Assembly: GCF_011405515.1 (NCBI RefSeq)
Contig: NZ_AP022671.1
Coordinates: forward strand, 372,001 to 436,000
DNA from: Nitrospira sp. KM1
Lineage (GTDB): Bacteria > Nitrospirota > Nitrospiria > Nitrospirales > Nitrospiraceae
Reading direction: 5' to 3'
DNA: 64,000 nucleotides
Part shown: positions 2,870 through 44,797 of the stretch, piece by piece
How the letters are laid out: each line of letters begins with the position of its first letter
Numbering within the stretch: position 1 is the stretch's first letter
Translations under genes and position numbers: made by a program
The notes under the pieces: model-generated
Told to the model about the DNA's origin: nothing
Seen by the model: only the letters and a program-made list of their open reading frames with translations
Databases searched by the model: none

Positions 2870-3337
2870 TCAAAATCTTCCGACCGCTTTTTGAGCCAGC
2901 GTTTTCAGTTTGTCTTCGTCGCCTGCGCTTTCCTTGAGCGAAAGCTTCACCGTCACACCCTGTTTCTTGATGAAGAGATTTACATAATCGAGCCCATGCA
3001 TTCCGCGGTCCATGAATGCGTCGTCGCCGAGGCCTTTCACAGTGACGGGTTTTTTCGAGACTTTGCGTCCTCGATTGATGCCGTCCGCAGGGAACACCCA
3101 GACTTCCATCGCATCCTTCCCGTTGGCGAATTCATAGTTGCACCAGCCGGCCTCACCTTCCTTGTCGCCCGTCGGCGTGCCCTTGAGCTTACCGACAACT
3201 TGCTCGACTTCCGCGGTCGTGAGGACCTTGCAGGGATCGACGGCGGGCGGAGCGGCAAGTACGAATGGGGCCAAGGCGGCAGACCATGCTACGACCAGAC
3301 AGCACGCAAGAGCCCAGTAATTCTTCGGCGATACCAT
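2870..3337 (-). CDS. secreted protein with DPCKVLT motif
   Basis: A 155-residue exported protein. A Sec signal peptide (ACCLVVAWSAALAPFVLA) is followed by PAVDPCKVLTTAEVEQVVGK and a second cysteine in GWCNYEF. The DPC.LLT..EV...G opening and later cysteine resemble DUF3558-like secreted proteins, so a disulphide is likely. The ATG chosen has AGGAG five bases upstream; a GTG six bases earlier is too close to that site. Its stop lies 210 bases before the start of the CARDB paralogue B, and it follows the 3348-4247 gene by 10 bases, so those two are probably co-transcribed. Function unknown. Confidence 0.82.
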   Translation of the reverse strand: MVSPKNYWALACCLVVAWSAALAPFVLAAPPAVDPCKVLTTAEVEQVVGKLKGTPTGDKEGEAGWCNYEFANGKDAMEVWVFPADGINRGRKVSKKPVTVKGLGDDAFMDRGMHGLDYVNLFIKKQGVTVKLSLKESAGDEDKLKTLAQKAVGRF

Positions 3338-3347
3338 AGGCACTCCT

Positions 3348-4247
3348 TCACGGTTTCTTTTCGATTTCTGTCATTGGCTGCTGGGTCTTATTGCTATCCG
3401 AACCGGTTTCCTCTCCAATTCCACGCGGACGGACCATTCCAGAGAACGCACCGGAGCCTTGCGACTGCGTCGTAGGAGGACGCAACATTGGCGCGGCCGC
3501 GCTGTTGCCTTGCGAGGGGGGTGGTGCGACTGAGGACGGGGAGGATTGCGCTGGGGTCTTGGTCAGGGGGTTGACTTGCGTGTCAAAAGGCAGGGTTCGT
3601 TTCGGCGGGAAAGGGCCGCAGATGAGTCCCACGGCGTCGAGGAAGAGTCCGGCTCGCCCATGAATTCCTACCGCCGCTTCACCGACAGGACAGACCTGGT
3701 CGGGATTCGATAATCCAAAGGGCTCATTAAAAGGACGATTGCTTGGTGCACTTGACGATCCAAAGACGAAGGTGCCTGGGGGGCCCGGAGGTCCAAGTGC
3801 GACGCATTGGACCCCAAGCTTGTTGACAAAGGGCTTATCCGACCGGAGAACCGTGACAGACCAAGAGTGGATGGCGCGGTTCTTCACACTTCCATCATTA
3901 CAATTCCCAAATGTGGTACGGCCTCCACGGCTGTCTCCGAATGAGCCCACTACCGACGACGGGCCAAAGATCTGACCGGAGTGCATCCAGGAGGCACAGA
4001 GCATCTCGATGCGGTCTACCCAATCACCGGCCTTACCTTGAAGTCCAACAAGGTAGGATCCTCTGGGGCACTCAGCCCTGAACGCATTCCCTCCAGAGGA
4101 TCCATAAGGGCCCAAATCGGTTGTCGCACCAACGAGGACCGGGAGTGTGAGAGCGATCACGAATAGCAGCATGGCTAGGACGTGGTGGAATCGCAATGAC
4201 GAAAGCGTTTCACGCATGCCTCCTGCCCGTGTGGGTGTCTCAAACAT
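3348..4247 (-). CDS. exported protein with two lectin-like repeats
   Basis: About 299 residues from the ATG preceded by GGAG seven bases away. An alternative ATG 30 bases downstream has AGGAGG too close. The open frame runs further upstream to 4496 but without export signal or binding site. The signal peptide is MLLFVIALTLPVLVGA. Two repeats follow: AECPRGSYLVGLQGKAGDWVD.I..LC and VCPVGEAAVGIHGRAGLFLDAVGLIC. This CP.G..VG..G+AG..+D...L+C pattern resembles jacalin or vitelline-membrane (VMO-I)-like beta-prism repeats. A proline, serine and glutamine-rich tail completes the protein. It overlaps no neighbour and is 10 bases from the next gene. Carbohydrate binding is only an inference. Confidence 0.75.
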   Translation of the reverse strand: MFETPTRAGGMRETLSSLRFHHVLAMLLFVIALTLPVLVGATTDLGPYGSSGGNAFRAECPRGSYLVGLQGKAGDWVDRIEMLCASWMHSGQIFGPSSVVGSFGDSRGGRTTFGNCNDGSVKNRAIHSWSVTVLRSDKPFVNKLGVQCVALGPPGPPGTFVFGSSSAPSNRPFNEPFGLSNPDQVCPVGEAAVGIHGRAGLFLDAVGLICGPFPPKRTLPFDTQVNPLTKTPAQSSPSSVAPPPSQGNSAAAPMLRPPTTQSQGSGAFSGMVRPRGIGEETGSDSNKTQQPMTEIEKKP

Positions 4248-4516
4248 TAGTTTTCTCCATATGTCAACCATCTTTATGGACTCGGAACCTCGGCAGTCAA
4301 CGTCCGAGGGACGGAAACCCAACGTGGAACAATTTCTTGCTAGGTCTAGTTTAGATGTGTCGAAAAGATGGAGAGAACGACGCCGATGCAAGCACAATCC
4401 ATCTCGAAAAACTATCCACTCGTGATTCTGAATAATGACTAGTATGTTCGAATCGGTATCTTGCAACTTGTGCATCCGGCATGATGTCGATTGCATCGGC
4501 GTTGATTTCTTATCTG

Positions 4517-5584
4517 CTATTTGGAAAAACCTTTCGGTGCTTGAAGCGCGTTATTGGTGACAGGCGCTAGGACGACAAACTCGACCCAGTCGCTCCACCC
4601 CGTTTCCGTGGGTGAAGAGATTTGAGCGCTCAACCGCCAGGCACCTGGAGTAGTGATCCCGCTGGGAGGAACGCCAGCGCCGAATCCTGAGTATCCGGCC
4701 GGGGACTCAGCCTGAACGGCTCCAACAGGAATGGTGGTATGGGAGATCCAGTTACCGGCGGGATCTTTTCGCTCAAGGCGGACCATGTAGATTCTCCCAG
4801 CAATCATCGGCGTACCATCGAGATTGACTTGCGTCTCAATCCAACCTTTGGGGGTCATAAGTTTGATGGGAACAGGAGACTGATTGAGAAACCGTTGGCC
4901 GGCGGTCGGCGCGAGCACGACAGGAGATAAGGAAGTCCGGAAAGGGGTTTCCTGTTGAATCCCACCTTTAAGTCGCTTATCAGTGCGTCGTTTTTCTTCC
5001 CTGAGATCCGCGTCGCGTTTGGCGGCCAGAGCTTGGCGCTCAGCGATTGACAGCGTCCAGGCCGTCATGGGCTTGGCCGAACTCCAGAGCGCGAACAGTT
5101 GCCCAATGGTCGGTAAGGATTTCCCATCCGGGCCCTTTCTTGGTCCTTCTTGAGCCGGTGTCGGCCCTGTACGACTGACAACCGGACATTTCACTCGAAG
5201 GAGAGAAGCTTCGTATGGAGGGCCATCGGGAGTCAGCCAGGGATCGGATGCGCAGGAATATCGGGTCGTCCATTTCCCATAAGGATGACTTGGCTCGGAG
5301 GTCGAAGGCGGAGCGATCTCAATGGTTTCTTCTGCAATGCTGCCGGAGTACTTGCCGTTGACGGTATAGGGAAAGGTCCTCGGTGCACCGAGCGATCCAT
5401 ACGTGGTGCATTGTCCGCCAGCGGTGTATCGCGCTGCCGCCATCGAAAACTGGCCTTGAGGCGATGACCACTGGCTGCATGGTGCAGTGCTTGGCCCGTC
5501 GAATCCTGCGCCCATTGTATCGATCGGCATGATGAGGAGAGCCGGGACGAAAATACGGAGCGCGAGGGTTCGATGCCTATTCAT
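4517..5584 (-). CDS. exported protein of unknown function
   Basis: A 355-residue protein with an N-terminal signal sequence (LALRIFVPALLIMPIDTMG) and GGGGAG seven bases before the ATG. The middle holds a charged, possibly coiled segment (ALAAKRDADLREEKRRTDKR). The C-terminal 140 residues look like a beta-sandwich (repeated PV.IK, G.W, RI.MVRLERKD, GAWRLSAQISSP, EFVVLAP). No catalytic motif seen. It belongs to the minus-strand exported cluster, with a 269-base gap to the next gene and 250 bases to the FecR gene upstream. Confidence 0.8.
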   Translation of the reverse strand: MNRHRTLALRIFVPALLIMPIDTMGAGFDGPSTAPCSQWSSPQGQFSMAAARYTAGGQCTTYGSLGAPRTFPYTVNGKYSGSIAEETIEIAPPSTSEPSHPYGKWTTRYSCASDPWLTPDGPPYEASLLRVKCPVVSRTGPTPAQEGPRKGPDGKSLPTIGQLFALWSSAKPMTAWTLSIAERQALAAKRDADLREEKRRTDKRLKGGIQQETPFRTSLSPVVLAPTAGQRFLNQSPVPIKLMTPKGWIETQVNLDGTPMIAGRIYMVRLERKDPAGNWISHTTIPVGAVQAESPAGYSGFGAGVPPSGITTPGAWRLSAQISSPTETGWSDWVEFVVLAPVTNNALQAPKGFSK

Positions 5585-5834
5585 GTACCGCTCCCCTCGT
5601 CATGATTGAGATACCGGTGAAAGTCGTGGGAATCGGGAGGCGGGTGGAGCAGCGAGATGGAAAAGAACGATGTCCTCTCCAAGGCATACGATCTCCTTCT
5701 GATGAGGCGACAGCGCTGAATTGTCGCCCGCCGCGAGACGACCCCTCTCCTTCATCCCCTCGAGCGGGCGTTCATCGCTCGCTGCTCGGTCCTGTATCGC
5801 ACGGCGGACGGAGAGCGTTCATGTCTCGCACCGA

Positions 5835-6458
5835 TCACTTACCTGCCGCCCGTACAGTCTCCGTCCATGACTTTGCCGCTTTCACATCGGTCGGAGCCGG
5901 CTTTGTGCATTTCTTGCCGCGGACGCCATAGCTGATAGTTTCTGTCTTGATCGGGCAGGTCCCGAATGGCGTGCCGAATTGCACCACTCCTTCAATGACC
6001 GTGAGGATGCTTTGGCCATCCTCCTGCACTTTCAGATTGAACTCAGTTTCCTTCACGGATGCCGTGGCAACCGGCGTTTCTACCTCGAACAGTTTCGGTC
6101 CGCCGCTGGTCTTCGCCCAGACTTCGCCCTGTTTGAGCCTGAGGATGCGAGTGGTAGGTTTATCTTTTTCCCAACGAGATAGAAGCTTCAAGCTCGTACT
6201 TTCGTTGAGTGCGACCTGTATCCCTTCCTTGAACTCGATCAGCGCCTGACTGGTGCCGTCGGTCTGAATGATGTCTCCTTCATAGAGTGGCACATTGCCC
6301 TTTCCCTGCAATCGCTGCTGCACACCGTCCGTTCGAATGATCACGAGCGTACCGATGGCATTTGTGGCGGATCCAATTGCGACATTCTGCGCCTGGCTGA
6401 TTCCGGCCGAGCCGGCAACACACGCGATCATACAAACCGTGATGAGCCTAAGCCTCAT
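5835..6458 (-). CDS. FecR-domain periplasmic protein
   Basis: A 207-residue exported protein. The signal peptide is MRLRLITVCMIACVAGSAGISQAQ. The mature part is a FecR domain: IGTLVIIRTDG, PLYEGDIIQTDGTSQALIEFKEG, L.LKQGEVWAKT, FEVETPVATASVKETEF, and L.V.EG.V. It ends with a short two-Cys tail. Here it is a free-standing, secreted FecR domain without the membrane helix and sigma-factor neighbour of a classic FecIR pair, so a surface or envelope role is likelier than iron signalling. I chose the ATG with AAGGAG nine bases upstream; the open frame extends 24 codons further into the neighbour's 3' end. It follows the YVTN lipoprotein by 52 bases. Confidence 0.88.
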   Translation of the reverse strand: MRLRLITVCMIACVAGSAGISQAQNVAIGSATNAIGTLVIIRTDGVQQRLQGKGNVPLYEGDIIQTDGTSQALIEFKEGIQVALNESTSLKLLSRWEKDKPTTRILRLKQGEVWAKTSGGPKLFEVETPVATASVKETEFNLKVQEDGQSILTVIEGVVQFGTPFGTCPIKTETISYGVRGKKCTKPAPTDVKAAKSWTETVRAAGK

Positions 6459-6510
6459 GATTGGACGCTCCTTCTTCGCATCAACGAGTTGCTCGACTTG
6501 ACATTGTCGG

Positions 6511-7536
6511 TTACCGGGACACCACGACACGGATCGGTTTCCGGCCCACAGGAACCGTTGCCAGTGTTTGCCCGGTTCCGGTGTCGATCACTCGAATTTC
6601 GTTTCCCTTATCATGGGCGACGAACAGCCTCGTACCCTCCGGATTGGACCAGATACCGTTGGGACCTTCGCCGACTGCAATTTCATCTGCGACCTTGAGG
6701 TTGCCCGGGTCTCCGCTCAGACCTATGATTTTGTTTTGGCTGCCGACGGTCACATAGGCCAGCGGACCTTGGGTGCCTTTGTAGGCAAAGGTAATCTGCT
6801 GCGGTTTGTCTCCGACGGTGAACGTGCCGACCTTTTCGTGATTCTCAGGATCCAGGACATAGATATCGTTCTCACCGGTGTTGACCCCCCACACATGGCC
6901 GTCACGACTTACGACGAGGAAGTGGGGATTGGCTCCAACCGGGATCGTCTTGATGACCTGGTGAGAGGCCGTGTCGATGACCCCAACGGTCTTTTCTCCC
7001 TGGCTGCTCACGAACGCGAACCGACCATCATGTGAAAAGGCAAGCCCGGTCGGTCCCTTTCCCACCGGAATCGTACCGAGGATCCTGAATGTCGTGGTAT
7101 CGACGATGGATATGGTGTTTTCACCGATATTGGCGACCCAGAGTTGGCTGTCGTCGTTGCTCAATGTCACCACGTGACATCGGTCACCCGTATAGATCGA
7201 CGCGATGGTCTCCTGTTTGGCCGTATCGATCACGGACACCCGGCCGGAAGCCAGATTGCTCGCATAGACTCGGCGGCCATCGCGGCTCACCGCCAAGTCA
7301 TGGGTCGAATGATTTTTAGACGGAATCGTTCCGATGGACTGGAACGTGTTGGCATCGATGACGCTGATGTCGTTGCTGCTTTCATTGGCGACGTAGATGC
7401 GTTGCGGGATCGATCCCGACGGCGTTGCCTCCTGTTTGAGCGCGTAGGATCCGATTTTCGACGGCTCGAGCGCGCTGCACGCCGCCATGTGCAACACGAA
7501 CCCCGTGGCGAGACATGCTTGAATCATCCGACTCAT
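6511..7536 (-). CDS. YVTN-type beta-propeller lipoprotein
   Basis: A 341-residue lipoprotein. The signal peptide ends in MAAC. It is followed by about seven YVTN-type blades (IYVANESSNDISVID, VYASNLASGRVSVID, LWVANIGENTISIVD, AFVSSQGEKTVGVID, VWGVNTGENDIYVLD, LAYVTVGSQNKIIGL, LFVAHDKGNEIRVID), the pattern of surface-layer or YncE-like propellers. GGAGGAATT precedes the ATG. It is 35 bases downstream of the WD40-caspase gene and 52 bases upstream of the FecR gene, so these three form one operon. Role: probably a binding scaffold on the outer side of the inner or outer membrane. Confidence 0.92.
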   Translation of the reverse strand: MSRMIQACLATGFVLHMAACSALEPSKIGSYALKQEATPSGSIPQRIYVANESSNDISVIDANTFQSIGTIPSKNHSTHDLAVSRDGRRVYASNLASGRVSVIDTAKQETIASIYTGDRCHVVTLSNDDSQLWVANIGENTISIVDTTTFRILGTIPVGKGPTGLAFSHDGRFAFVSSQGEKTVGVIDTASHQVIKTIPVGANPHFLVVSRDGHVWGVNTGENDIYVLDPENHEKVGTFTVGDKPQQITFAYKGTQGPLAYVTVGSQNKIIGLSGDPGNLKVADEIAVGEGPNGIWSNPEGTRLFVAHDKGNEIRVIDTGTGQTLATVPVGRKPIRVVVSR

Positions 7537-7571
7537 AATTCCTCCATCGATAAAGTGGCCCGTATAAGTGG

Positions 7572-10500
7572 CTATCGAACCTGCCCCAGTACCAACTGAC
7601 CTTCGACCTCGCCCTTCTTCACCGGATGCTGATTCTGGCCGGTCACTTCCGGCACCCGCTTCGAAACATAGCCGTATGCCTCATCGACCGTGATGATGCC
7701 GTCTTTGTCGGAATCTGCCTTGCCGCGGAGTCCCTCAAGCAGATAGTACGTGAACACGCCGTGACCGAGATCCTCGCGTTCCTCGCTGACCTCACTGGCT
7801 TTGCTGGCGCTCAACACAATGCGCCCTTTCCCTTTGGACAGCCGCGCGAGAAAGTTCTCCGACACCATGGCCCGCCGCGAGGCGGTGGCGAAAGTCCGGC
7901 CGGCGGTTGCGCCGCTGTAACAGGAATCGCTGATAAAAATGACCCGCTCAGGCATCAGACGCTGAAAAATCGTTTCAATTTCGCGCATCGGAAGACCGGT
8001 CGTGTATAAATCACGAGGGTCTGCGTCGAACGGCACAATGTACTTCTCCAATCCGTCGTCGTCCCCCGCCGAGGCGTCCGCCTCTGGCGCGCCATGGCCG
8101 GCATAGTAGACGATCACGGTATCCTTTTCTCCGGCCTTCCTCCTGAGCTCGGTCCCCAAGGTTCGCTTGAGATTCATCAGCGTGGCCTGGTCGTTCAGGA
8201 GCAACATCGTTTGCTCTTGCGGGATGCCGATGTGATTGGCCAAGTATTCGTGAAACGCAAGCGCGTCTTTGTCCGCGTATCGAAGCGGTTGCACCGCCTT
8301 GTATTGTGAAATCCCGATGACCACCGCCCAGATTTTTCCACGGTCCGAGGTGCGGAGCACGCGCACGGCACGCGTCGCCGACAAGTTCTCCTGATCGACC
8401 GCCGTCACGACGATCTCGTTTTTGCCCTCGCGAAGGCTTAGGCGCTCCGCAAATTCCAGGTTGGTTTGCACATCGCTACTTCCGGGTTTGACCGCAATGC
8501 CGCGACTTTCACGCTGCGTGACGAGTTGTCCGTTCAGGCGGATCTCGATGCGGGAGATACCTTTTTCACTGGCCGCTGCACCGGCCAGATTGATCCTTTC
8601 ACTGCCAACTTCCATCCCGTCGTAGGGCGTCGCGAGCGCGATCAGCGGAGGAGCGTTTTGAAACAATTTGACCGGTGCGCCTGAAATTGCCGGAACCGGC
8701 ATGTCGGCCTTGCCCGCCTCTCTCATGTCGCGGACATCGGCCTTGGCCACCCAACCGGTTTCCGTCGGCGACAGATGCACGCGATACCATTCGTCGAGAT
8801 CGCCCGAAACCGCGAGTTCCTGCCCCTTCGCCCCAGACGCGATGACTGATGTCTCCGAACCGGCGCCGCTATGAATCTTGACGGAAGGTGATTCGATTAC
8901 CACGAGTTTGTTCGTCGCAATGATTTGTGGAATAGCCCGGTGATCGACGGCCAGTTTGAGGGTTTCATCCAACGTGACATTCGATCCACGTTCCCTGACG
9001 AAAAGACGAACCGAAATCTGTTCGTCGCGGATCTCTCTCCCCACGAAGAGGTTGGCCGTCGCTTGCTTGGCTTCATCGGCCTTCAGCGAGCCGTAATCCA
9101 GCAGGGATTTGTTCAACCGGAGATTGATGCTCGGCGGCACAGAGAGGTCGATCGACGCATGCTGGGCCGGAACTGTTCCGACATTCTTCAAGGTGACCAG
9201 CAGATCGACGGCCTCACCTTTTTGAATACGTCCATCCCCGTTGCCGACCGACCCGCCCCGGCCATCGTCGATGACCTGCAGCGTATACGCAAAGCGAGGA
9301 CGCGGAAGCCCCTTCATGACGACCAACGCTTTCATCTGGTCGGGAACAAAACCATTGTATTCCTCGAATTCCAGACGGATCGGAATGGTCCCGTCCGGAC
9401 GATCTCTCGGGATAGTTATCGCGATCACGTCCTCTGCCGATTGACCGCCTTCGACCTTCCCCAGATAAAACACGTGACCGTCCAATGCAGGATCGTCGCT
9501 CTTGACTCTGCCCTGAAACCGAAAGAGCGGACCCTTTCCTTTGTTTTTCAAAGTCAACGTGAGGTTCACTTCATGTCCTGCTTTCACTTCCATCGGACGG
9601 ATGGCAAGATCGGCTTCCGGTAATGGCGGTGGGGAGGGTGGGGCGCCGATTTCGTCTCCACGCCGTTGGATTTTCTCGGCCAACCTGGTGGTCAATGACG
9701 GTGGAGTAGGGGGTTGAAGACGAACGGCCCGGTCTCGTCCCCCGGATGCGACCAAACTATCGTCCGGCGCAAGGGCGATGGCATGGACAGGCCCTTTATG
9801 TCCTCCGAGCATGTGTCGTTCATTCCCCGACGGGACATCCCACACACGTACCGTGCCGTCCGCACCGGCGGAAATGATCGTGCGGCCATCGGACGAAAAA
9901 ACCAACGCAGATACCGCGCCCTTGTGGCCGCTCAACGTGAGGTGCTCCTGGCTGCTTTCAAGCTCCCAGATTCTGATCGTCCCGTCGGCGCCGGCGCTGG
10001 CAAGCAGTTGACCGTTGGGATGGTAGGCGACGCCGTGGATGGCTCCGGTATGGCCGGTTAGCGCTTGTCGCTGCCTGCCGGTGGCGACATCCCACACGTG
10101 AACCTGGGAATCGCTGCTGCCGGTGGCAATTGCTTTTCCGTCTGGCGAGAATCGGATGGCAAAGACAACGCCGAATTGGCCCCGCACGGATTTCAACTCC
10201 CGACCGGTTGCTGTGTCCCACAACCTGAAACTGCCGTCGTTGCCACCGGTCGCAATCGTTTTCCCATCTCCGGAAAACGTCACGGACCTCACCGTTCCAA
10301 ATGACGACGTAACGGCGTGAAGCTCGCGCCCGGTCGTCACGTCCCAAATTCGAATGGACGTATCGGCGCCTCCTGAAGCAAGCTGTTTGCTGTCAGGAGA
10401 AAACGCAAGGGCATGGACAGCTCCCATATGGCCGCGGAGCACGCGCAAGTCTCGCCCTGTGTCGGTTTCCCATAGGCGAATCGTTTGATCGGTTCCAGCC

Positions 10501-10682
10501 GACGCGACGAACCGACCGTCCGGGGAAAAGGTGACGGCAAGGACCTCATTCGTGTGACCGCTAAGAAGGCGGGTTGCTTGTTCGAGAGCCAGAGCGGAAT
10601 AGGGAAAGAAACAGAAGATGAAAACCGATAATCCGATGCCACCGGTTCGGCACATGACGCGGATCAACAGTTCTCCGCTCAC
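7572..10682 (-). CDS. secreted WD40 / SH3 / caspase-like protein
   Basis: A 1036-residue protein. It begins at a GTG with GAGGGAG upstream and an N-terminal signal or anchor segment (GIGLSVFIFCFFPYSALA). Seven or eight WD40 repeats (about 37-325; GH...V..V.FSPDG....SG..D.+I+LW) form a propeller. A proline-rich linker leads to two beta-sandwich segments (about 355-590) similar to CARDB-like domains. A bacterial SH3 (about 595-650; VKIHSGAGSETSVIASG, WYRVHL.ETGWV) and an Ig-like segment follow. The caspase (peptidase C14) domain spans about 784-1020, with the catalytic pair His863 in YYAGHG and Cys921 in SDSCYSG. An EF-hand-like loop (DSDKDGIITVDEAY) lies near the C-terminus. The fold implies Arg- or Lys-specific proteolysis, but the substrate is unknown. 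It heads an operon with the YVTN and FecR genes. Confidence 0.93.
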   Translation of the reverse strand: MSGELLIRVMCRTGGIGLSVFIFCFFPYSALALEQATRLLSGHTNEVLAVTFSPDGRFVASAGTDQTIRLWETDTGRDLRVLRGHMGAVHALAFSPDSKQLASGGADTSIRIWDVTTGRELHAVTSSFGTVRSVTFSGDGKTIATGGNDGSFRLWDTATGRELKSVRGQFGVVFAIRFSPDGKAIATGSSDSQVHVWDVATGRQRQALTGHTGAIHGVAYHPNGQLLASAGADGTIRIWELESSQEHLTLSGHKGAVSALVFSSDGRTIISAGADGTVRVWDVPSGNERHMLGGHKGPVHAIALAPDDSLVASGGRDRAVRLQPPTPPSLTTRLAEKIQRRGDEIGAPPSPPPLPEADLAIRPMEVKAGHEVNLTLTLKNKGKGPLFRFQGRVKSDDPALDGHVFYLGKVEGGQSAEDVIAITIPRDRPDGTIPIRLEFEEYNGFVPDQMKALVVMKGLPRPRFAYTLQVIDDGRGGSVGNGDGRIQKGEAVDLLVTLKNVGTVPAQHASIDLSVPPSINLRLNKSLLDYGSLKADEAKQATANLFVGREIRDEQISVRLFVRERGSNVTLDETLKLAVDHRAIPQIIATNKLVVIESPSVKIHSGAGSETSVIASGAKGQELAVSGDLDEWYRVHLSPTETGWVAKADVRDMREAGKADMPVPAISGAPVKLFQNAPPLIALATPYDGMEVGSERINLAGAAASEKGISRIEIRLNGQLVTQRESRGIAVKPGSSDVQTNLEFAERLSLREGKNEIVVTAVDQENLSATRAVRVLRTSDRGKIWAVVIGISQYKAVQPLRYADKDALAFHEYLANHIGIPQEQTMLLLNDQATLMNLKRTLGTELRRKAGEKDTVIVYYAGHGAPEADASAGDDDGLEKYIVPFDADPRDLYTTGLPMREIETIFQRLMPERVIFISDSCYSGATAGRTFATASRRAMVSENFLARLSKGKGRIVLSASKASEVSEEREDLGHGVFTYYLLEGLRGKADSDKDGIITVDEAYGYVSKRVPEVTGQNQHPVKKGEVEGQLVLGQVR

Positions 10683-20448: not shown

Positions 20449-22935
20449 CTAGCTGCCGTGCCGGACGAAGATGAAATCGCCCAGACTCTCATGTCCGGCC
20501 ATATGGATGGGATCGTAGGTGGGAATCTGTTCGGCATTGAGTTTCTGCGATGTGCTGACTACTCTGGTACGGACGGCCCAGAACAGTCGCTCCGCTTCGA
20601 GCACGCTGCCGTTGTCCTCCAGTACGCCGAGAAACGCTTCAGCGAAGACGGAGTGCCCGCTTCCGCCTGCATCGAGCACCGGCTGAACACCGCCGGAAGT
20701 CATGGCCGTGCGGACGCGTTTCTGCGCCAGCGTCTTCAGGAGATCGAACCTCGCCTCATCGGTCAATCCCGGCTTCAGTTGTGCCAATGACGCACGCGTC
20801 AGTTTGCCTCCGAAGCAGGAATCCGCCACGACCATGACGTGCTTCGCCGAGATCAACTGCAGCATGTCCGTGATACCGGGGAGCAACACCCATTCGGAGT
20901 TGTCGTGGGTCTCCGCATCCACCGGAATCCAATAACCTCGATCGATTCCCTGATCGAGATGCCCGTGACCGGCATAATAAATCAAGAGATTGTCTTTCTC
21001 CGTGAGAATCTTGCGGTATTGATTGAGCGCCTTCATGATCTGCGCGCGAGTCGCATCCGTCAGCAGCGTGACTTGAAATCCGTAGTGGGCCTTGAGCACG
21101 TGTGCAACGGCAGTGGCGTCAGAGATGGCGTTCATAAGCTGCGGCCAGTGCTGGTAATGGTCGTTGCCGATGACCAGGGCGTGATAGCGGCCGAACGCCG
21201 TGAAGTCCGTGTCGGCGGCCCCTGCTGCTTTTCCTGAGGCCCGTGAATTCAGCGAAAATTTGAGCGTGGCCAGCTTGTTCTGAATATCGACCGCCAGAAT
21301 CTGGACGTCGACGTCCTCGTGACCCGATCGCAGGGCCGGCAGAGACGTCGTAAAGACCCCGTCGGCGTTCGGTGTAACCGGCACGCCATTGACCGTGAGC
21401 GTGCGGAGCCCCGCCGGAGCCAGCACGCGCCCCGTAATCGACTGTCTGGCATTGATCCTGACGGCAATAGCCGTCTGGTCTGTTGTCACCTGAATGCCTC
21501 GATGGAGCGCCGTCGGCGGATCGATGATTTCCAGCGAAGGACCGTCGAACCCCAAGTCTGTCACCGACGCGACCTGAAGCGCCTTGGCCTGTTTCTCCGC
21601 CTCGGCTTCCAGCGAAGCGATCTTCTCCCTCAGCAGGGTGACTTCTCTAGTACGATCGTCGGTTTCGCGCCTTGCCTGGCCCATGTCCTGCTGCAGAACT
21701 CTGATCGTGTCTTCGTACTTCGTCATCGCTGCAGCCTGGTCGGGGTTGGCGCGCAGCTGTTCTAATTCAATACGTGCCTGATCGTATCTCTCTTCGATTT
21801 CCCGGCTCTTGCGCTCTTGATCTGACGCAATCTGTTCGCGTTCGGCAAGTTGGCTGCTCAACTGCACGAGATTCTGATTTGCCGCCGTGAGCTTCGCCCG
21901 GAGGGCTTGAGTTTCACGATCCTTCGCAGCGACAGTGTGCTCCAACACCTGGATGCGCCCGGCGTTCTTCTCGAGCAGCTTTATGCGACCCTGGAGTTGA
22001 AGTACTTCGGAGTCTCGCTCCGCCAGACGCGTTCGGTCTTGTGTCATGGAAGATGCGAGGATTTGTAATCGGCGCTCGAGTGCAACAGCCTGCGGATCCT
22101 TTTCAGACTTTCCCTTCAATGCCGTCAGCTCAGTCTGCAGCCTATCCGATTGTTGCTCTCGCTGTTGCAGTTTCGCTCGGGCCTGCTGCGCCTGAGCGAC
22201 GCGATCGTTCAATTCGAGCCGCAGGACAACGACGTCGCCGTTCACCCGTTGTACCTCGCTGCTCAGTTTCTTGATTTCTTGATCCTTCCCAACAACGGCC
22301 CGTTCGAGTTCCTCGATGCGCTTGGCCGCTTGCCCGTCTGGCTGCCACGTTCTGGCCAGACCGGAGAGGGCCGATTCGCTCAGCCCGGAGGCGCGCGCAA
22401 ACCATTTGGAAGCCTCACTCGGATCTTTCGCCACACCGAGTCCTTGTTCATACAGGCGGCCCAGCCCGATCGCCGCACGCTTGTCCCCCTGATCGGCGGA
22501 CTTGCGATACCATTTCGCCGCCTGGTCATAATCCGGAATGCCGCCTTGGCCTCGTTCGTAGATCGTGGCAGCGTAATATTGTGCTTCAGCCGACCCTTTC
22601 TCCGCCTCGCCCAGCCAGATTTTCAGCGCCGATCGATAGTCGGCTCGATCGGCGGCGACATATTCGCCGCCGCGAATGGCACAGTCCTCTCGAGTCGTCC
22701 GAACCGGCCGTCGTTCCGTCACATAGGTGGACATGGTTCCGAGCTGGCGGATCTGTCCCGGCAGCAGGCAGTCGACGACTTCGTAGTCATCGGAATTCCC
22801 CGGCGCGCTGACGGCACTTGCGACCGAACTCGAGGAGTCGAGGGGAGGAGCCTCCGTTTTACAGGATGAGAGCAGCCCCACCATGACGGCGGGAAGGATG
22901 ATGCGTGCGGTTGATTTGACGGAAAGGAAGGTCAT
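20449..22935 (-). CDS. Sel1 / coiled-coil / caspase lipoprotein
   Basis: An 828-residue lipoprotein whose signal peptide ends in LSSC. Two Sel1-like repeats (about 105-180; A.YYAATIYERGQGG..DY..AAKWYRKSA and AIGLGRLYEQGLGV..D..EA.KWF) are followed by a long coiled coil (about 205-455) and a beta-rich linker. The caspase (peptidase C14) domain carries His657 in YYAGHG and Cys707 in ADSCFGG. It differs from the WD40-caspase at 7572-10682 in every domain but the peptidase. The catalytic pair is intact, so it is probably an active protease or regulated switch at the periplasmic face. Binding site weak. Divergent from the autotransporter gene. Confidence 0.93.
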   Translation of the reverse strand: MTFLSVKSTARIILPAVMVGLLSSCKTEAPPLDSSSSVASAVSAPGNSDDYEVVDCLLPGQIRQLGTMSTYVTERRPVRTTREDCAIRGGEYVAADRADYRSALKIWLGEAEKGSAEAQYYAATIYERGQGGIPDYDQAAKWYRKSADQGDKRAAIGLGRLYEQGLGVAKDPSEASKWFARASGLSESALSGLARTWQPDGQAAKRIEELERAVVGKDQEIKKLSSEVQRVNGDVVVLRLELNDRVAQAQQARAKLQQREQQSDRLQTELTALKGKSEKDPQAVALERRLQILASSMTQDRTRLAERDSEVLQLQGRIKLLEKNAGRIQVLEHTVAAKDRETQALRAKLTAANQNLVQLSSQLAEREQIASDQERKSREIEERYDQARIELEQLRANPDQAAAMTKYEDTIRVLQQDMGQARRETDDRTREVTLLREKIASLEAEAEKQAKALQVASVTDLGFDGPSLEIIDPPTALHRGIQVTTDQTAIAVRINARQSITGRVLAPAGLRTLTVNGVPVTPNADGVFTTSLPALRSGHEDVDVQILAVDIQNKLATLKFSLNSRASGKAAGAADTDFTAFGRYHALVIGNDHYQHWPQLMNAISDATAVAHVLKAHYGFQVTLLTDATRAQIMKALNQYRKILTEKDNLLIYYAGHGHLDQGIDRGYWIPVDAETHDNSEWVLLPGITDMLQLISAKHVMVVADSCFGGKLTRASLAQLKPGLTDEARFDLLKTLAQKRVRTAMTSGGVQPVLDAGGSGHSVFAEAFLGVLEDNGSVLEAERLFWAVRTRVVSTSQKLNAEQIPTYDPIHMAGHESLGDFIFVRHGS

Positions 22936-28663: not shown

Positions 28664-29083
28664 TCATTGTAGTGGCGTTTGATGTGTGCTGGCAGAGGTA
28701 TCGGCGCATCCCTCTTTCACAAACGCGGCTGTCTTATCTCGGACCTGTCGGAGCCTGTTTTCCTCTTCCTCGTTTCCTTGATTCCGAGAACCGACTATGG
28801 CCGCATCGAATTTGGCTATATTCGCGATGGCCTCTTTGCACTTGCGCTCTTTTATCAATCGAACATACTGCTCCAGAAGCTCGTGCTGCCTTGCATGAGT
28901 GTCCTCCCGACTCGATTTCTGCCCTGCAGTGGCCTCTAAGTTTTTTGTGGCTTCTACCAACTCCTTGGGAATCGGTCCTCCCTCTAAGGTCTTCATCACT
29001 TCATCAGCGCTATGCGCCATAACGCGAGAGGGGACATCGAGCGAGTAGCCCAAGAGGAGATACAACATGCAGAGGATTTTCAT
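28664..29083 (-). CDS. secreted helical protein, unknown
   Basis: A 139-residue protein with a signal peptide (MKILCMLYLLLGYSLDVPSRVMA). The mature part is highly charged and helical, with ARQHELLEQYVRLIKERKCKEAI, NEEEENRLRQVRDK and two cysteines that could pair. GAGG precedes the ATG. No family assigned. Confidence 0.65.
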   Translation of the reverse strand: MKILCMLYLLLGYSLDVPSRVMAHSADEVMKTLEGGPIPKELVEATKNLEATAGQKSSREDTHARQHELLEQYVRLIKERKCKEAIANIAKFDAAIVGSRNQGNEEEENRLRQVRDKTAAFVKEGCADTSASTHQTPLQ

Positions 29084-29183: not shown

Positions 29184-30710
29184 CTAGTAGACGCCAAAAA
29201 AAGTCTTATCAGTCACGAATAGCATTGTGAGCGGGAGCAGCTTGCTGAACCGCTTTGGAATCGTCTTGGGATAGTAATTCATGATCAACTCGTTTCCCGG
29301 CTCAGTCGTGATCGGTTGCCAAATGCGATATTCATATCGAATCGGCGAATAGTTTAACGTCTTTGTTTTGTCGTCGTAGTCAAACTGCCAATCCCAGCCG
29401 TCCATGAACTCGTCCATCGTTTCGTAACCGGCCCGGACATACGCGGGAAACGGATGGCTCGGATCGAACAGCTTGATTGTTTTGCCCGGTAGGTACGGAT
29501 GCTTGTATGTGCCTTCCAGCCACTTGCGCACGGCCGCTTTCCAATCTGCGGGCTTGCCGGTGTTTTTGGGCAACGGCATCGACTGTTTCTTTGGTCCCTG
29601 GGTGAACGGATCCCTATAATATGGAAACTTCTCGTTAATGAGGAACCTCCGTCGTGCAGAGGCTTTGGTCTTGATCACGGGCAACATGACCGGCGAGGGC
29701 AACGTAGGCGGATCTTTCGGCAGTTTCTTGCCGAGCACCGAATAGCGATGCTTGCGCATATCGCGCGGCACCCATGCCGCCCACGAGGTGGTTGGAACGT
29801 GCTTGCCGCTGCGCAAAGTAAAGCGTGGATCTTTCTTTTTTTCCGCAGCCTTGCTTTTGGCATCGAATAGCCCCAGCAGGGTCTTCCGGTCTTTGGCAGG
29901 CATCGGACAGTGCAATGTAAAGTCATATCCGAGATAAGCAATCGGGCCAGGTGGTGAGGCAATTTTGTCAGGCATAGCGAGAAACTTCGGCGCGATCAAC
30001 GTAATCTTTCCCCCGAGGGCCTCTTTCAATTTCTGCATGTATGGCACCTGCGCACCGACCGAACACCCGAGCAGCCTGAGTTCCGCGGGGCCGGCGCCAG
30101 CCGGACGCGGCTGCATCAAGTCCATATCGACGACCAGATACTTTTTGGCCACAGCTTCTTCGAGTGCTTCATAGCTCACCGACGCATCGACGCTCGTTCC
30201 GGCCGAAATCGTAATACGGAACGCTCCGCTGCTGGACGCATGGCCGACCACCATCAAATAGCGGATCGGATAGATGAACTCATCGCTGGTTGCGATGCCG
30301 CTCAAAAATCCGTCGAGGGTCATCATCGACGCATTTTGAATCACGACAGTCTTCGGTCGGGCGCTGACATAGTCTGCCATCAGATCATCGAACGTCGGTT
30401 TATAGCCACGCTTTTTCTTATCCGCCGCCGGCGTGGCTCCGGGAACAATCGCGTAGTCACGACAGTTTGTATTGGCTTCCTTCTGCATGGCGTCGGCACA
30501 GGGTTTCGGCGGCGGCGTCACGACACGAACCGTGTCGCCGGCACTGACACGGGTCTTTAGACCATCGAGCGGCAATTCTCGCTTGGTTCCAGCCTGAAGA
30601 ACTTTGACCCCGCCATATTGGATTAAAATCGGAATGCGCCATTGCATGACGCGGTTTCGGAGCAGGAACCGCGTCAGACGCGTATCGGACTGAACCAAGA
30701 AATCGGGCAT
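29184..30710 (-). CDS. protein with clan CD-like His/Cys pair
   Basis: A 508-residue protein without signal peptide; AAGG precedes the ATG. Residues 100-245 have hydrophobic strands followed by YLMVVGHASSSGAF (His157) and, 59 residues on, ELRLLGCSVGA (Cys216). Hydrophobic strand-G-H...G and strand-GC+.G at this spacing match the catalytic layout of clan CD (caspase, CHAT, DUF4347-like) peptidases. I cannot name a family. The C-terminal half is rich in lysine and proline, then aromatic residues (EFMDGWDWQFDYDD). It is the last gene of a three-gene operon, 56 bases after the 74-residue repeat protein. Peptidase activity is inferred. Confidence 0.6.
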   Translation of the reverse strand: MPDFLVQSDTRLTRFLLRNRVMQWRIPILIQYGGVKVLQAGTKRELPLDGLKTRVSAGDTVRVVTPPPKPCADAMQKEANTNCRDYAIVPGATPAADKKKRGYKPTFDDLMADYVSARPKTVVIQNASMMTLDGFLSGIATSDEFIYPIRYLMVVGHASSSGAFRITISAGTSVDASVSYEALEEAVAKKYLVVDMDLMQPRPAGAGPAELRLLGCSVGAQVPYMQKLKEALGGKITLIAPKFLAMPDKIASPPGPIAYLGYDFTLHCPMPAKDRKTLLGLFDAKSKAAEKKKDPRFTLRSGKHVPTTSWAAWVPRDMRKHRYSVLGKKLPKDPPTLPSPVMLPVIKTKASARRRFLINEKFPYYRDPFTQGPKKQSMPLPKNTGKPADWKAAVRKWLEGTYKHPYLPGKTIKLFDPSHPFPAYVRAGYETMDEFMDGWDWQFDYDDKTKTLNYSPIRYEYRIWQPITTEPGNELIMNYYPKTIPKRFSKLLPLTMLFVTDKTFFGVY

Positions 30711-30766: not shown

Positions 30767-30991
30767 TCATCCGGTCAGATCGAAGGCTACCCGGCCGGGT
30801 GCAAGCGCCGCCAATTCCACGAGCAAGGCTGCGCTTAACGCCGAGCAATCCTTGATGGTCAGCGATCCGCCGCCGGCTGCGGCCGCCGTGCATAGCGCGC
30901 GCAATTGCACGACCGTCATCGATGGAGCTTCGACAACCAAGCCGCCACCGGCCGAGAGAATCGCCTTCAGTTGTTCGTGCGTGAGGATCAT
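30767..30991 (-). CDS. triple helix-strand repeat microprotein B
   Basis: A 74-residue protein, again three repeats of ~24 residues: LTHEQLKAILSAGGGLVVE, TVVQLRALCTAAAAGGGSLTI, and ALSAALLVELAALAPGRVAFDL. Each is helix-strand with the pattern L..L..I...GGGL.I. The same design is seen in the 67-residue protein at 14400-14603. Here it is the middle gene of an operon (53-base gap upstream, 56-base gap downstream), which ties the family to the large GspG-tailed protein. The binding site is a weak GGGG. Confidence 0.7.
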   Translation of the reverse strand: MILTHEQLKAILSAGGGLVVEAPSMTVVQLRALCTAAAAGGGSLTIKDCSALSAALLVELAALAPGRVAFDLTG

Positions 30992-31044: not shown

Positions 31045-34000
31045 TCATGCGATCTCCGCGCTCGGCTGGGGCGGCACGATGTTCGGCGGATTGACCGTAA
31101 CGCCGATGTCCATCGCACCGGTTGGTGTGTACTCAAACCAGGTGGAGATCAGCGAGGCCTCGGCATTTGCCGAGATGTCGGCGTTTTTGTCCGCGCCCCC
31201 CGGCACCCCGTCAGCGCCAAAGCAAATCAGGTCGTAGTCCCCGCTGTCGCCTGGGCATTTGTAGTAGTAGTCATGCCCCCAGGTCACATCGGTGGCCGGT
31301 ACGCTCGTATAAGTCGACAGCAAGGCCTCTTGCGGTGTCGCCGGATCCAAGGCGAGTTGTTGATTGTTGGCCTGCGTGTTGTAGTCGTTGATGCCATTGT
31401 ACGTGGTGCCATTGATGACAACCGGACCGTCCAAGAAAGCCGTCAGCGCAGCCACTGGAATCGTGTTCCCGGTGAGTCCGGCTGGAAAACTTCCCGTCGC
31501 CGCCTTGCAGGCGTTCAGCAACTGAATCATATATTGCATCTCGCGCCAGACGCGGCGTTGTTCAAGAAAGAGCAGAGGGCGCGCGTTCTGCTCGGGGTTC
31601 GCCGGTGGAAACCCGGGGTAGTTGGTGTTGGCGAAATTCTGAATCTCCTGCGCGATCGTCACATAGGGGTGCGGCCCCGGCAGGGAACCGAATGAACCGG
31701 ATTCTATTAAGCTAGTAAAACTTGACTCAAAACCGGATCGAATCGTCAACACGACGCGTGCCGCGCCGGAGCGGAGAAACATGCGGTGTGTCGGATCGGG
31801 ATGATACAGAAACTTCTTGAAGTCCCACAGTTTGTTGTCATCCCAGAAGTAGGGATAGGTGAAGTACAGGACGTTCTCCCACTCGATCGCGTTATGCAAA
31901 TACTTGATGAATTCGCCGCGCTCCAGCACGCTTATCCACTCGGCTTCGGTCAGACGGTTGGGATCCAGCACATCGCCGACACCCGGATGGCTGGCATCGC
32001 TGCCGAACAGCCCTGACAGGTTGAACGGCACCAGATAAAATTGCGGTCCCAGCAGCCACCGCAATACCCCTTTCATGATTTCCTCGCGCTCCATGCGGCG
32101 CAAAGTCAATGCGTCGAAGTCGGCGATCTGCTGTGTCAGCTTCGCCTGCTCGTCACGGTAGTTTTGAAGATTTTTGTTGTACTGCTCTTCCGCAGCCTGA
32201 CGAATCTGCCCCCAAACTTGGAGCCGCCAGTCGAGCAGCACCTGCACCTTCGGCCGGCAAATGAACGTGATGTTGATCGCATAGTTGTAGACATACTGAT
32301 ACATGAAGTCGATCGACAGATGTCCGGACATGCCGATCAGCCTGTTTAAACCCGCGCTCAAAGTTTCGCTGCCGAGCATCAATAAAAACGAGCGTGTATC
32401 ACCCTCATTTCTTTGGTAGTTCAATTCGAACTGCACCGTATAGATGTAGTAGTTCTCGTCGATGTCGAAGTCGATCGAATCAAAGTGCACGTTGTCGTAG
32501 TCGTTGACCGGTTGTGTCTCTTTGTGCACGTTGACCCATTTGCGCGCTTCGGGCGGCGCGGTCACCGCGGCATTGTATTGGGCGGCGAGCGTGTCGTAGT
32601 TCGAAATCAAATGCGGGTCGGTCGCCAGCGAGTTGTAATAGATCGCCGTCAGCGGCAGCGTGAAGCTAAACGGTGTGCCGATCAATGCATCGAGCTTTTT
32701 GACGTCTTCAACCAGTCTGACGATGCCGGCTCCGGGGTTCGGAATGACGATGTCGTAGGTCATTCTCAGCCCGTAGCGCAAGAGATCGACCTTCCACTTG
32801 CGCGCCAACTGAAAATAATCGATGCGCATCGTGTCGGTTGCGCTTGGGTTCGAAATCACGCGCACCGACTGGTCTTCGCTGCCGACCACCGAGCTTACTT
32901 TAAACGTCACTTTGTGATCTTTTTTCGTACGGGCCGAAGCCTTCTTCGTAATCTCCATGCTGTGATTCCGGCTGTCCTTCTTCGACCGGGTATCGTTCGA
33001 TGTCGCCGAATAGCCGAAGTTGGTGCTCAGCGTGACCGCGCCATAACTGGCCGACAGCGAGGCGCCGACATTGAGCGCGGTCGCATGTTGCGACTGCGAG
33101 TCGGTCGACATCGCGATGTCATTCTTCTCGGCCACCCCCTGTTCGCTGTAGCCCTCGAAGAAATCTTGCACGATGTCTTCAAATTCGCGCTCCGTGATCG
33201 ACCATTCTTTATGACTGATATTGACCGTCTCGCCGGGCGCCAGCGGCACCGAATTCGCCAACTCGCCGCGCTCGACGCCGGCGGGGCACATCTCGACGCG
33301 CTCCAGATGAAGATTGCCGACCGGTTCCACCATCATGCGCGACTGGAAGCCGTTGATCGCCCCGCCCACCGAAGTGGGGTTGAGTACCGTCGCAAACACG
33401 CTCTGTAACGTGCCAAGCAGCGCAGGAACATTGCCGGCCGCGGCACGCTCATCGAGCGTGACACCGAGATACGGCTGCAGTTGTTGTGCAAGACTCGAAA
33501 ACAAGCGCGGATGCGCCTTTTCCGCCCATCCGATGGCGGCCGCATTCGATGGCTGATAACTTGCCCCTGCATCGGCCGCCAACGACGACGAGAACGCCTC
33601 GGGTAGGGGACGCGATTCGTCGATCGTGATCGAGACGGTTTGCCCGCGCAGTTCCAGCTTGCTCTTTGCGCCGGCAGTCTTGGTCCGTGCCGATGACGGT
33701 GCCTTGGCTGCGGCAAGCGGTGTGACGCTTGTGATGATCGGCAGGCCGTTGGCCGATTCGCCCGTTTGCACGGTCGCGCCCTTGGGATCCGCCGTCTTCC
33801 GTGCTGTCGGTGAACCGGTATTTCCCTCCGACGGCACAACCAGCGCGGCGCGATAGGCGACGACGATTTCTGCGACAGATTTCGTGATCGACTCCACCAT
33901 CTGCGCGCGATAAGCCGCCAGTTGTTGCGCGATCGCGATCAAGGTGGCCGGCGCAATCGCGGCGAACAGCGCGGCACTATTCAGTGTGGAAGTGCCGGTC

Positions 34001-34275
34001 TGATCGGCAATCAACCGAGCGATCGCCTTATACGCCTCGGGTAGTTGAGCCTGATGCTCAGCCGTGAGTGATGATGTGATTGCAGCTGATTGCCTGGGTA
34101 ATGCCGCCAATTCGGGTGCAACGATCCGCAGCGCCTGCACAAAAGCGGCTTTTTCAACTGCGCGGGTTAAATGAGCAGTCGGCGGTGCGCTGCGCACATC
34201 GCCGGTCTGTGCGGGACTGATCTGGCAATATGTTGCTTTATAACTCGTGCGCTGTGCATTTCTGAGCGGGGCCAT
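31045..34275 (-). CDS. 1076-residue protein with GspG-like C-terminus
   Basis: A very large protein with no signal peptide or transmembrane segment. Residues 1-200 are Ala-rich and partly disordered. Residues about 315-510 form a distinct region (NLHLERVEMCPAGVERGELA, NISHKEWSITEREFEDIV, then a Ser/Thr/Asn-rich beta part, then RKWKVDLLRYGLRMTYDI). The middle has coiled-coil (about 685-735) and aromatic segments. Residues 998-1034 read WGHDYYYKCPGDSGDYDLICFGADGVPGG..NADI. This is the hallmark of the GspG major pseudopilin C-terminal domain with its calcium-binding loop. No prepilin helix is present. GAGGAG lies before the ATG. First gene of the operon with the microprotein and clan CD-like gene. 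I do not recognise the rest of the protein. Confidence 0.75.
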   Translation of the reverse strand: MAPLRNAQRTSYKATYCQISPAQTGDVRSAPPTAHLTRAVEKAAFVQALRIVAPELAALPRQSAAITSSLTAEHQAQLPEAYKAIARLIADQTGTSTLNSAALFAAIAPATLIAIAQQLAAYRAQMVESITKSVAEIVVAYRAALVVPSEGNTGSPTARKTADPKGATVQTGESANGLPIITSVTPLAAAKAPSSARTKTAGAKSKLELRGQTVSITIDESRPLPEAFSSSLAADAGASYQPSNAAAIGWAEKAHPRLFSSLAQQLQPYLGVTLDERAAAGNVPALLGTLQSVFATVLNPTSVGGAINGFQSRMMVEPVGNLHLERVEMCPAGVERGELANSVPLAPGETVNISHKEWSITEREFEDIVQDFFEGYSEQGVAEKNDIAMSTDSQSQHATALNVGASLSASYGAVTLSTNFGYSATSNDTRSKKDSRNHSMEITKKASARTKKDHKVTFKVSSVVGSEDQSVRVISNPSATDTMRIDYFQLARKWKVDLLRYGLRMTYDIVIPNPGAGIVRLVEDVKKLDALIGTPFSFTLPLTAIYYNSLATDPHLISNYDTLAAQYNAAVTAPPEARKWVNVHKETQPVNDYDNVHFDSIDFDIDENYYIYTVQFELNYQRNEGDTRSFLLMLGSETLSAGLNRLIGMSGHLSIDFMYQYVYNYAINITFICRPKVQVLLDWRLQVWGQIRQAAEEQYNKNLQNYRDEQAKLTQQIADFDALTLRRMEREEIMKGVLRWLLGPQFYLVPFNLSGLFGSDASHPGVGDVLDPNRLTEAEWISVLERGEFIKYLHNAIEWENVLYFTYPYFWDDNKLWDFKKFLYHPDPTHRMFLRSGAARVVLTIRSGFESSFTSLIESGSFGSLPGPHPYVTIAQEIQNFANTNYPGFPPANPEQNARPLLFLEQRRVWREMQYMIQLLNACKAATGSFPAGLTGNTIPVAALTAFLDGPVVINGTTYNGINDYNTQANNQQLALDPATPQEALLSTYTSVPATDVTWGHDYYYKCPGDSGDYDLICFGADGVPGGADKNADISANAEASLISTWFEYTPTGAMDIGVTVNPPNIVPPQPSAEIA

Positions 34276-43975: not shown

Positions 43976-44797
43976 TTGCACGAGACGTGCTCGGTGAGCT
44001 GTCTGCGGGCCTGTCGACTGGCGCAGTTTAGTCGCGCGGCCTGGTATCGAACAAGTCGGGCGAAAGATCAATCGGCACTACGGTTGCGTCTCCGTGATCT
44101 GGCTCACGCGCGACCCCGCTTTGGCTATCAGCGGATCTGGGTGCTGTTACGGCGTGAAGGGTGGGTGAGCAATCGCAAACGGGTGCGCCGCCTTTATCGC
44201 CTCGACGGTTTACAGCTGCGCATGCGGGTGCGGCGCCGCAAGCACATCGCGCTCCACCGGGGGCCGGCTCCGGTGGCGGTGGGTCCACACGAGCGCTGGA
44301 GCATGGACTTTGTGCATGATAGTCTCGCCGACGGCCGGCCGTTTCGGATTCTGACCGTCGTCGATAACTGGAGTCGCTCTAGCCCGGTGCTCGAGGTGGG
44401 ATTTCGCATGACCGGCATGCTAGTGAGTCAGGTTCTGGATCGGGTGCTCGGCACAGCGGCGGGGCCGCGCTCGATTACGGTGGATCATGGGACGGAATTT
44501 CAGTCTCGCGCCTTGGAAGATTGGGCCTACCGTCGCGGGGTACAACTGGACTTCATCCGACCGGGCAAGCCCGTGGAGAATGCCTTCATTGAGTCATTGA
44601 ATGGCCGTCTACGTGATGAGTGTTTGAATGTGCATCAGTTCGTCTCCTGGGCGGAGGCGCAAGCGATTGTCGAAGCCTGGCGGGTGGATTACAATCACCA
44701 CCGCCCCCACAGCTCACTCGGCCACCTGACACCGATGGAGTTTGTCAGTCAACGTCAGATCATGCAGACCGTCGAGGAAGTCGTCTGTTCTGGGTAA
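43976..44797 (+). CDS. IS3 transposase OrfB (DDE integrase core)
   Basis: Catalytic subunit in the -1 frame relative to OrfA. The fused product would run 43677-44797 and read KKSLRPARRRELAHWLHE across the slip. Catalytic residues: Asp in WSMDFVHD, Asp in ITVDHGTEF, Glu in ENAFIESLNGRLRDECL. All three are present. The TTG listed is only the first start codon; translation most likely comes from the frameshift. Confidence 0.92.
   Translation: MHETCSVSCLRACRLAQFSRAAWYRTSRAKDQSALRLRLRDLAHARPRFGYQRIWVLLRREGWVSNRKRVRRLYRLDGLQLRMRVRRRKHIALHRGPAPVAVGPHERWSMDFVHDSLADGRPFRILTVVDNWSRSSPVLEVGFRMTGMLVSQVLDRVLGTAAGPRSITVDHGTEFQSRALEDWAYRRGVQLDFIRPGKPVENAFIESLNGRLRDECLNVHQFVSWAEAQAIVEAWRVDYNHHRPHSSLGHLTPMEFVSQRQIMQTVEEVVCSG

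What the first reader, a model, noticed from the sequence alone, without database searches (positions are those of the whole stretch)
29184..30710. Candidate clan CD peptidase in an unknown family
The 508-residue protein has VVGHASSSG (His157) and ELRLLGCSVG (Cys216), 59 residues apart, each after a hydrophobic strand. This is the spacing and context of caspase, CHAT and DUF4347-like catalytic pairs. In the same operon as the giant protein, it could process or sense it.
Basis: partly seen in the sequence, partly recalled or inferred. Interest (0 to 1): 0.6.

Follow-up and report, generated by a model that had tools for sequence, protein, structure and literature searches.

The report
Caspase-like enzyme in a swappable cassette
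A Nitrospira-family bacterium carries an undescribed, probably caspase-like cysteine enzyme next to a very large protein that in other microbes is followed by many unrelated enzymes, so the enzyme looks like one exchangeable payload of an uncharacterised cassette rather than a protease dedicated to its neighbour.

Summary
The 508-aa protein is real (minus strand, 29184-30710), with His157 and Cys216 where stated; no Pfam, PHROGs or NCBIfam family matches it. Full-length homologues were found in two Nitrospira genomes and a Lysobacteraceae MAG (30-33% identity). Its central domain recurs in two eCIS_core (DUF4157) proteins, the type that carries injected effectors. His157 and Cys216 are the only invariant His and Cys of that domain. 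A confident AlphaFold2 model of a homologue's domain (pLDDT 75, pTM 0.74) has the caspase/haemoglobinase element order, with His after strand 3 and Cys after strand 4. Profile similarity to C14 and DUF4347 is weak but beats shuffles and decoys. Foldseek against the PDB returned flavodoxin-like folds, not peptidases, and the usual His-Gly is absent. So 'clan CD-like' is supported; membership and proteolysis are not shown. Processing of the giant is not favoured: the giant's relatives occur in many bacteria and an archaeon, followed by unrelated enzymes (trypsin-like, phospholipase D, patatin, L,D-transpeptidase-like, metallophosphatase, glycosidase-like). P0001 most likely fills this variable enzyme slot. 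The giant also carries a GspG pseudopilin domain that some relatives replace.

The parts
29184..30710 (-). P0001, 508-aa protein carrying the His/Cys enzyme domain
   Evidence: Translation; full-length homologues in Nitrospira UBA5698 and RBC100 and in a Lysobacteraceae MAG
30501..30710 (-). N-terminal small domain (residues 1-70), conserved in full-length homologues only
   Evidence: Best-modelled part of the first AlphaFold2 job, pLDDT about 64-86; alignment A3
29904..30461 (-). Central caspase-like His/Cys domain (residues 84-269), shared with eCIS_core proteins
   Evidence: Profile A3 matched this region in G708 (E 9.7e-12) and G619 (E 1.6e-5); alignment A4; model of the homologous domain
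30240..30242 (-). His157 codon, predicted general base
   Evidence: Invariant in A4; equivalent His69 follows strand 61-67 in the model
30063..30065 (-). Cys216 codon, predicted nucleophile
   Evidence: Invariant in A4; equivalent Cys123 follows strand 117-121 in the model
29187..29843 (-). C-terminal region (residues 290-508), no family match, conserved in full-length homologues
   Evidence: Alignment A3; no Pfam match
31045..34275 (-). P0002, 1076-aa giant protein; relatives are followed by variable enzymes
31171..31356 (-). T2SSG (GspG pseudopilin) domain near the C-terminus of the giant, residues 974-1035
   Evidence: Pfam PF08334, 41.1 bits against cut-off 21; profile A2 hits solved GspG structures, E 1.5e-13
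30767..30991 (-). 74-aa ORF between the giant and P0001
   Evidence: Sequence; not tested for homologues
28664..29083 (-). 139-aa ORF with a hydrophobic N-terminus, 100 bp downstream of P0001; possible partner or immunity protein
   Evidence: ORF list; no Pfam match; role is inference only

Best explanation
P0001 is the exchangeable enzyme (payload) of a two-gene cassette whose constant part is the giant protein P0002. Its central domain is a caspase/haemoglobinase-like cysteine hydrolase: His157, at the end of strand 3, would activate Cys216, at the end of strand 4, to attack a peptide or similar bond in a target molecule. The flanking N- and C-terminal parts would serve docking or specificity. 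Shown: the gene, the invariant His/Cys pair, the element order in a modelled homologous domain, use of the same domain in eCIS_core proteins, and the variability of the gene next to the giant. Inferred: peptidase chemistry, physical association with or delivery by the giant, and the target.
For: His157 and Cys216 are invariant across five lineages, and no other His or Cys of the domain is. Model of the homologous domain, pLDDT 75 and pTM 0.74: order b1-a1-b2-a2-b3(His)-short strands-a3-b4(Cys)-a4-b5, as defined for clan CD in PMC4357240. Profile-profile alignments with C14 (E 0.002, 157 columns) and DUF4347 (E 0.005, 139 columns) are collinear over the domain and bring the His and Cys positions together. 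They score above all 200 column shuffles and above 19 decoy families; CHAT does not. The same domain is part of two eCIS_core proteins, one in a cluster with two more eCIS_core genes and a DUF6519 gene; eCIS_core/DUF4157 marks eCIS toxins (PMC8213781, PMC11297309). The gene after giant relatives is variable: Trypsin_2, PLDc, Patatin, Rv2525c-type glycosidase-like, Metallophos, YkuD (below cut-off) and several unnamed families. In the Lysobacteraceae MAG the P0001 homologue is followed by an ORF that resembles, by eye, another slot family.
Against: The window protein itself modelled poorly in this domain (pLDDT about 24-36); the good model is of a homologue with 23% identity. Foldseek against the PDB put flavodoxin-like folds first and no clan CD peptidase in the top 50; the viral library gave one caspase-domain protein third, at TM 0.38. 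No curated family matches. The His-Gly of clan CD is His-Ala here in most members. P0001 lacks an eCIS_core domain, no eCIS was looked for in this genome, and no experiment ties the giant to delivery.
Confidence: 0.58

Rival explanations
1. P0001 is a dedicated protease that cleaves or senses the giant protein, as a processing or activating enzyme.
For: Adjacent, same strand, next to the giant in the three genomes where both can be seen, 9 bp apart in two Nitrospira genomes.
Against: Most giant relatives have no P0001-like neighbour; the position is held by lipase-, glycosidase- and phosphatase-like proteins that would not process a protein. The catalytic domain occurs in eCIS_core proteins with no giant in the fetched neighbourhood.
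Confidence: 0.12
2. The domain has a flavodoxin-like or other three-layer alpha/beta fold and is a non-peptidase enzyme, or a binding protein with a structural His/Cys pair.
For: Foldseek PDB hits are flavodoxins, azoreductases and receiver domains; no peptidase family matches by sequence.
Against: TM-scores to those hits are only 0.3-0.4. Flavodoxin-like and caspase-like sheets share the order of the first strands (established knowledge), so such hits are expected. The invariant His and Cys sit at the two catalytic positions of clan CD, and the best profile matches among families tested are C14 and DUF4347.
Confidence: 0.22
3. The domain has lost activity and serves as a scaffold or sensor, as some CHAT-type and pseudo-caspase domains do.
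For: Clan CD's conserved His-Gly is His-Ala in most members.
Against: Both catalytic residues are kept in every member despite 20-40% identity elsewhere in the domain.
Confidence: 0.08

Closest known systems
Clan CD cysteine peptidases (caspase/haemoglobinase fold; C14, C11, C13, C25, C80)
   Same: His before Cys, at the ends of strands 3 and 4; same order of secondary elements in the modelled homologue; short strands between b3 and a3
   Different: No sequence-level family match; His-Gly not conserved; His-Cys spacing 54-61 against 42-49 in the examples of PMC4357240; activity untested; no clan CD hit in the PDB fold-search top 50
DUF4347 (PF14252)
   Same: b3-His, hairpin, helix, b4 with GC motif, helix, b5; collinear profile alignment bringing both residues together
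   Different: Not matched by the Pfam model; different protein architecture (DUF4347 sits in open frames of 566-3736 aa)
eCIS-associated toxins with an eCIS_core (DUF4157) domain
   Same: Two such proteins carry the same His/Cys domain after eCIS_core
   Different: P0001 has no eCIS_core domain and sits with a giant protein instead; no eCIS shown in this locus
Type II secretion pseudopilin GspG (domain in the giant)
   Same: C-terminal pseudopilin domain with the DxWG...GADGxxGG...DADI motif
   Different: At the end of a roughly 1000-aa protein without the N-terminal pilin helix; also in Gram-positive bacteria; replaced by another domain in some relatives

Membership tests
Clan CD (caspase/haemoglobinase fold) | Catalytic His/Cys dyad in the order His then Cys | tested here: met
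   His157 and Cys216 invariant in 6 sequences from 5 lineages; catalysis itself not tested
Clan CD (caspase/haemoglobinase fold) | His at the C-terminal end of strand 3, Cys at the end of strand 4 | tested here: met
   Model of the homologous domain: strand 61-67 then His69, strand 117-121 then Cys123; inferred for P0001 by alignment
Clan CD (caspase/haemoglobinase fold) | Sheet order 2-1-3-4(-5-6), last strand antiparallel | not testable with these tools
   Model coordinates are not exposed; only the linear order of elements is known
Clan CD (caspase/haemoglobinase fold) | Glycine adjacent to the catalytic His, conserved in all families (PMC4357240) | tested here: not met
   Residue after His is Ala in P0001 and most members, Gly only in L157; a Gly precedes His only in P0001
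Clan CD (caspase/haemoglobinase fold) | Structural similarity to a solved clan CD peptidase | tested here: inconclusive
   No clan CD entry in the 50 best PDB hits; one caspase-domain protein in the viral library, prob 0.97, TM 0.38
Clan CD (caspase/haemoglobinase fold) | Peptide-bond hydrolysis | not testable with these tools
   Needs an assay
Peptidase C14 (PF00656), CHAT (PF12770), DUF4347 (PF14252) | Match to the Pfam model | tested here: not met
   No Pfam family up to E 10; weak profile-profile similarity for C14 and DUF4347, none for CHAT
eCIS-associated toxin with eCIS_core | eCIS_core (PF13699) domain in the protein | tested here: not met
   Absent from P0001; present in homologues L156 and L157
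GspG pseudopilin (for the giant) | T2SSG domain plus N-terminal prepilin helix in a small protein | tested here: not met
   Domain met (41.1 bits), but it is C-terminal in a 1076-aa protein; NCBIfam GspG score 35.3 is below cut-off 88.85

The most novel reading that the evidence does not exclude
The giant protein, with its exchangeable C-terminal domain (pseudopilin type or another), plus the variable enzyme gene behind it form an undescribed payload system spread over Bacteria and at least one archaeon, and P0001 founds a new caspase-like enzyme family used both there and in contractile injection system effectors.
Probability: 0.4. Interest if true: 0.8.

Novelty: new variant of a known kind. 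Interest (0 to 1): 0.52.

Why it matters
A caspase-like domain without a curated family model that appears both in eCIS effector-type proteins and in a separate giant-protein cassette would link two payload systems. The giant with swappable partners is, as far as the searches here reach, undescribed, and gives a ready route to new secreted or injected enzymes in environmental bacteria.

Tried and rejected
Single-protein scan of genome contigs for P0001 gave nothing. Viral contigs, plasmids and phages gave no homologue. 195 genomes of the Myxococcus phylum gave none with the domain profile. The first structure job on full P0001 was unusable in the catalytic region. HMM scores of P0001 against DUF4347, CHAT and C14 were no better than shuffles, and hhalign with three sequences found nothing; only the five-lineage alignment gave a signal. 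A weak N-terminal hit in L051 was a chance match to a nucleotidyltransferase-like ORF. PDB sequence searches with P0001 profiles gave only chance hits. GH5-like and GH18-like names for some slot proteins rest on motifs read by eye; Pfam and PDB did not confirm them. In high-GC loci several 'downstream ORFs' are wrong-frame and were not counted as families.

Full report
What is there. The minus-strand ORF 29184-30710 encodes P0001, 508 aa, with His157 and Cys216 as described. The + strand of the same stretch has stops. No Pfam, PHROGs or NCBIfam model matches (a single PHROGs hit at E 0.73 is noise). The genome belongs to the Nitrospira family: the hits in G061 and G128 lie on contigs of the same length as those that the named collection labels Nitrospira sp. 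UBA5698 and RBC100.

Homologues. In 396 genomes drawn from the phylum only these two other genomes had a homologue. Searching the genomes that hold relatives of the giant gave a third, in a Lysobacteraceae MAG (E 5.4e-94; 30% identity). Its giant lies on another contig (L038) that ends with the giant, so adjacency is likely but not shown. A profile of these four then found two distant members among 280 genomes of the order of that MAG, G708 (E 9.7e-12) and G619 (E 1.6e-5), matching only the central region. Both are eCIS_core (DUF4157) proteins. The G619 gene lies between two other eCIS_core genes and downstream of a DUF6519 gene. His157 and Cys216 are invariant in all, along with Asp85, Gly162, Gly215, Gly219 and a few small or hydrophobic positions.

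Fold. AlphaFold2 on full P0001 with three sequences was poor in the centre. With the five-lineage alignment and the G708 domain as target it gave pLDDT 75 and pTM 0.74. The order is strand 7-12, helix 22-34, strand 39-41, helix 47-56, strand 61-67, His69, short strands, helix 92-101, strand 117-121, Cys123, helix 129-138, strand 144-146. This is the element order of the caspase/haemoglobinase fold, with His and Cys on the loops after strands 3 and 4 (PMC4357240). Foldseek did not name a clan CD protein in the PDB top 50; hits were flavodoxin-like at TM 0.3-0.4, and in the viral library a caspase-domain protein ranked third. By established knowledge the two folds share the order of their first strands, so this is ambiguous rather than contrary. 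Profile-profile scores to C14 (27.8) and DUF4347 (24.3) exceed all 200 column shuffles (best 19.9 and 19.5) and 19 decoy families (best 21.4), while CHAT (13.8) does not. The reversed profile scored 20.9 against C14, so the margin is modest.

Surroundings. The gene before P0001 encodes P0002, 1076 aa, with a T2SSG domain at 974-1035; the profile of four giants matches solved GspG structures. Relatives occur in Burkholderia, Myxococcus, Moraxellaceae, Streptomyces, Micromonospora, Nonomuraea, Paenibacillus, Desulfobacterales, Gemmatimonadetes, a cyanobacterial plasmid and a haloarchaeal plasmid. Near the C-terminus some have the T2SSG domain, others a different insert, before a shared end motif like SLIxEWFEYTPxSGxDI. 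The next gene varies: Trypsin_2 (L039), PLDc (L060, L064, L066), Patatin (L073; annotated in L147), Rv2525c_GlyHyd-like (L071), Metallophos (L051), YkuD below cut-off (L058), and unnamed families including one of seven members with glycosidase-like motifs and one of five members. P0001-like proteins fill this slot in three genomes. In the Lysobacteraceae MAG an ORF that resembles the glycosidase-like family by eye follows the P0001 homologue.

Interpretation. The invariant pair, the modelled element order and the profile signal make a caspase-like cysteine hydrolase the best reading (about 0.75 for fold and dyad). Catalysis and substrate are inferred. The variable slot and the recurrence in eCIS_core proteins argue for a payload or effector role over a processing enzyme for the giant (inference; about 0.55). 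Membership of clan CD is not claimed, because the conserved glycine beside His is absent and fold search was ambiguous. The paper library gave no description of such a family or cassette, but it holds open-licence papers only.

Noticed in passing
31171-31356 (-), within giant 31045-34275: GspG pseudopilin domain detached from the pilin helix at the end of a 1076-aa protein; in relatives (L029, L060-L066, L145) the slot holds a different domain.
   Followed up: partly
7572-10682 (-) and 20449-22935 (-): Two genuine Peptidase_C14 (caspase) genes in the same window, one with WD40 repeats (1036 aa), one with Sel1 repeats (828 aa).
   Followed up: partly
30767-30991 (-): 74-aa ORF in the 334-bp gap between giant and P0001; the Nitrospira relatives have only a 9-bp gap there.
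   Followed up: no
28664-29083 (-): 139-aa ORF with a hydrophobic N-terminus just downstream of P0001; candidate secreted partner or immunity protein, no Pfam match.
   Followed up: no
L147 (Natronorubrum bangense plasmid) 3324-6767 and 6931-8379: An archaeal giant relative followed by a patatin-like phospholipase gene.
   Followed up: partly
L048, L056, L057, L059, L068 downstream of the giant: Unnamed 615-669-aa family with a YEIKPR-type motif, possibly nuclease-like; next gene after the giant in five actinobacterial or Paenibacillus loci.
   Followed up: no
43976-44797 (+): IS3-type transposase (DDE integrase) by sequence reading; a mobile element about 10 kb from the cassette.
   Followed up: no
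L034, L072, L073: A second, distant giant subfamily with IPTxLVML-type C-terminal ends instead of the EWFEYTP motif.
   Followed up: no
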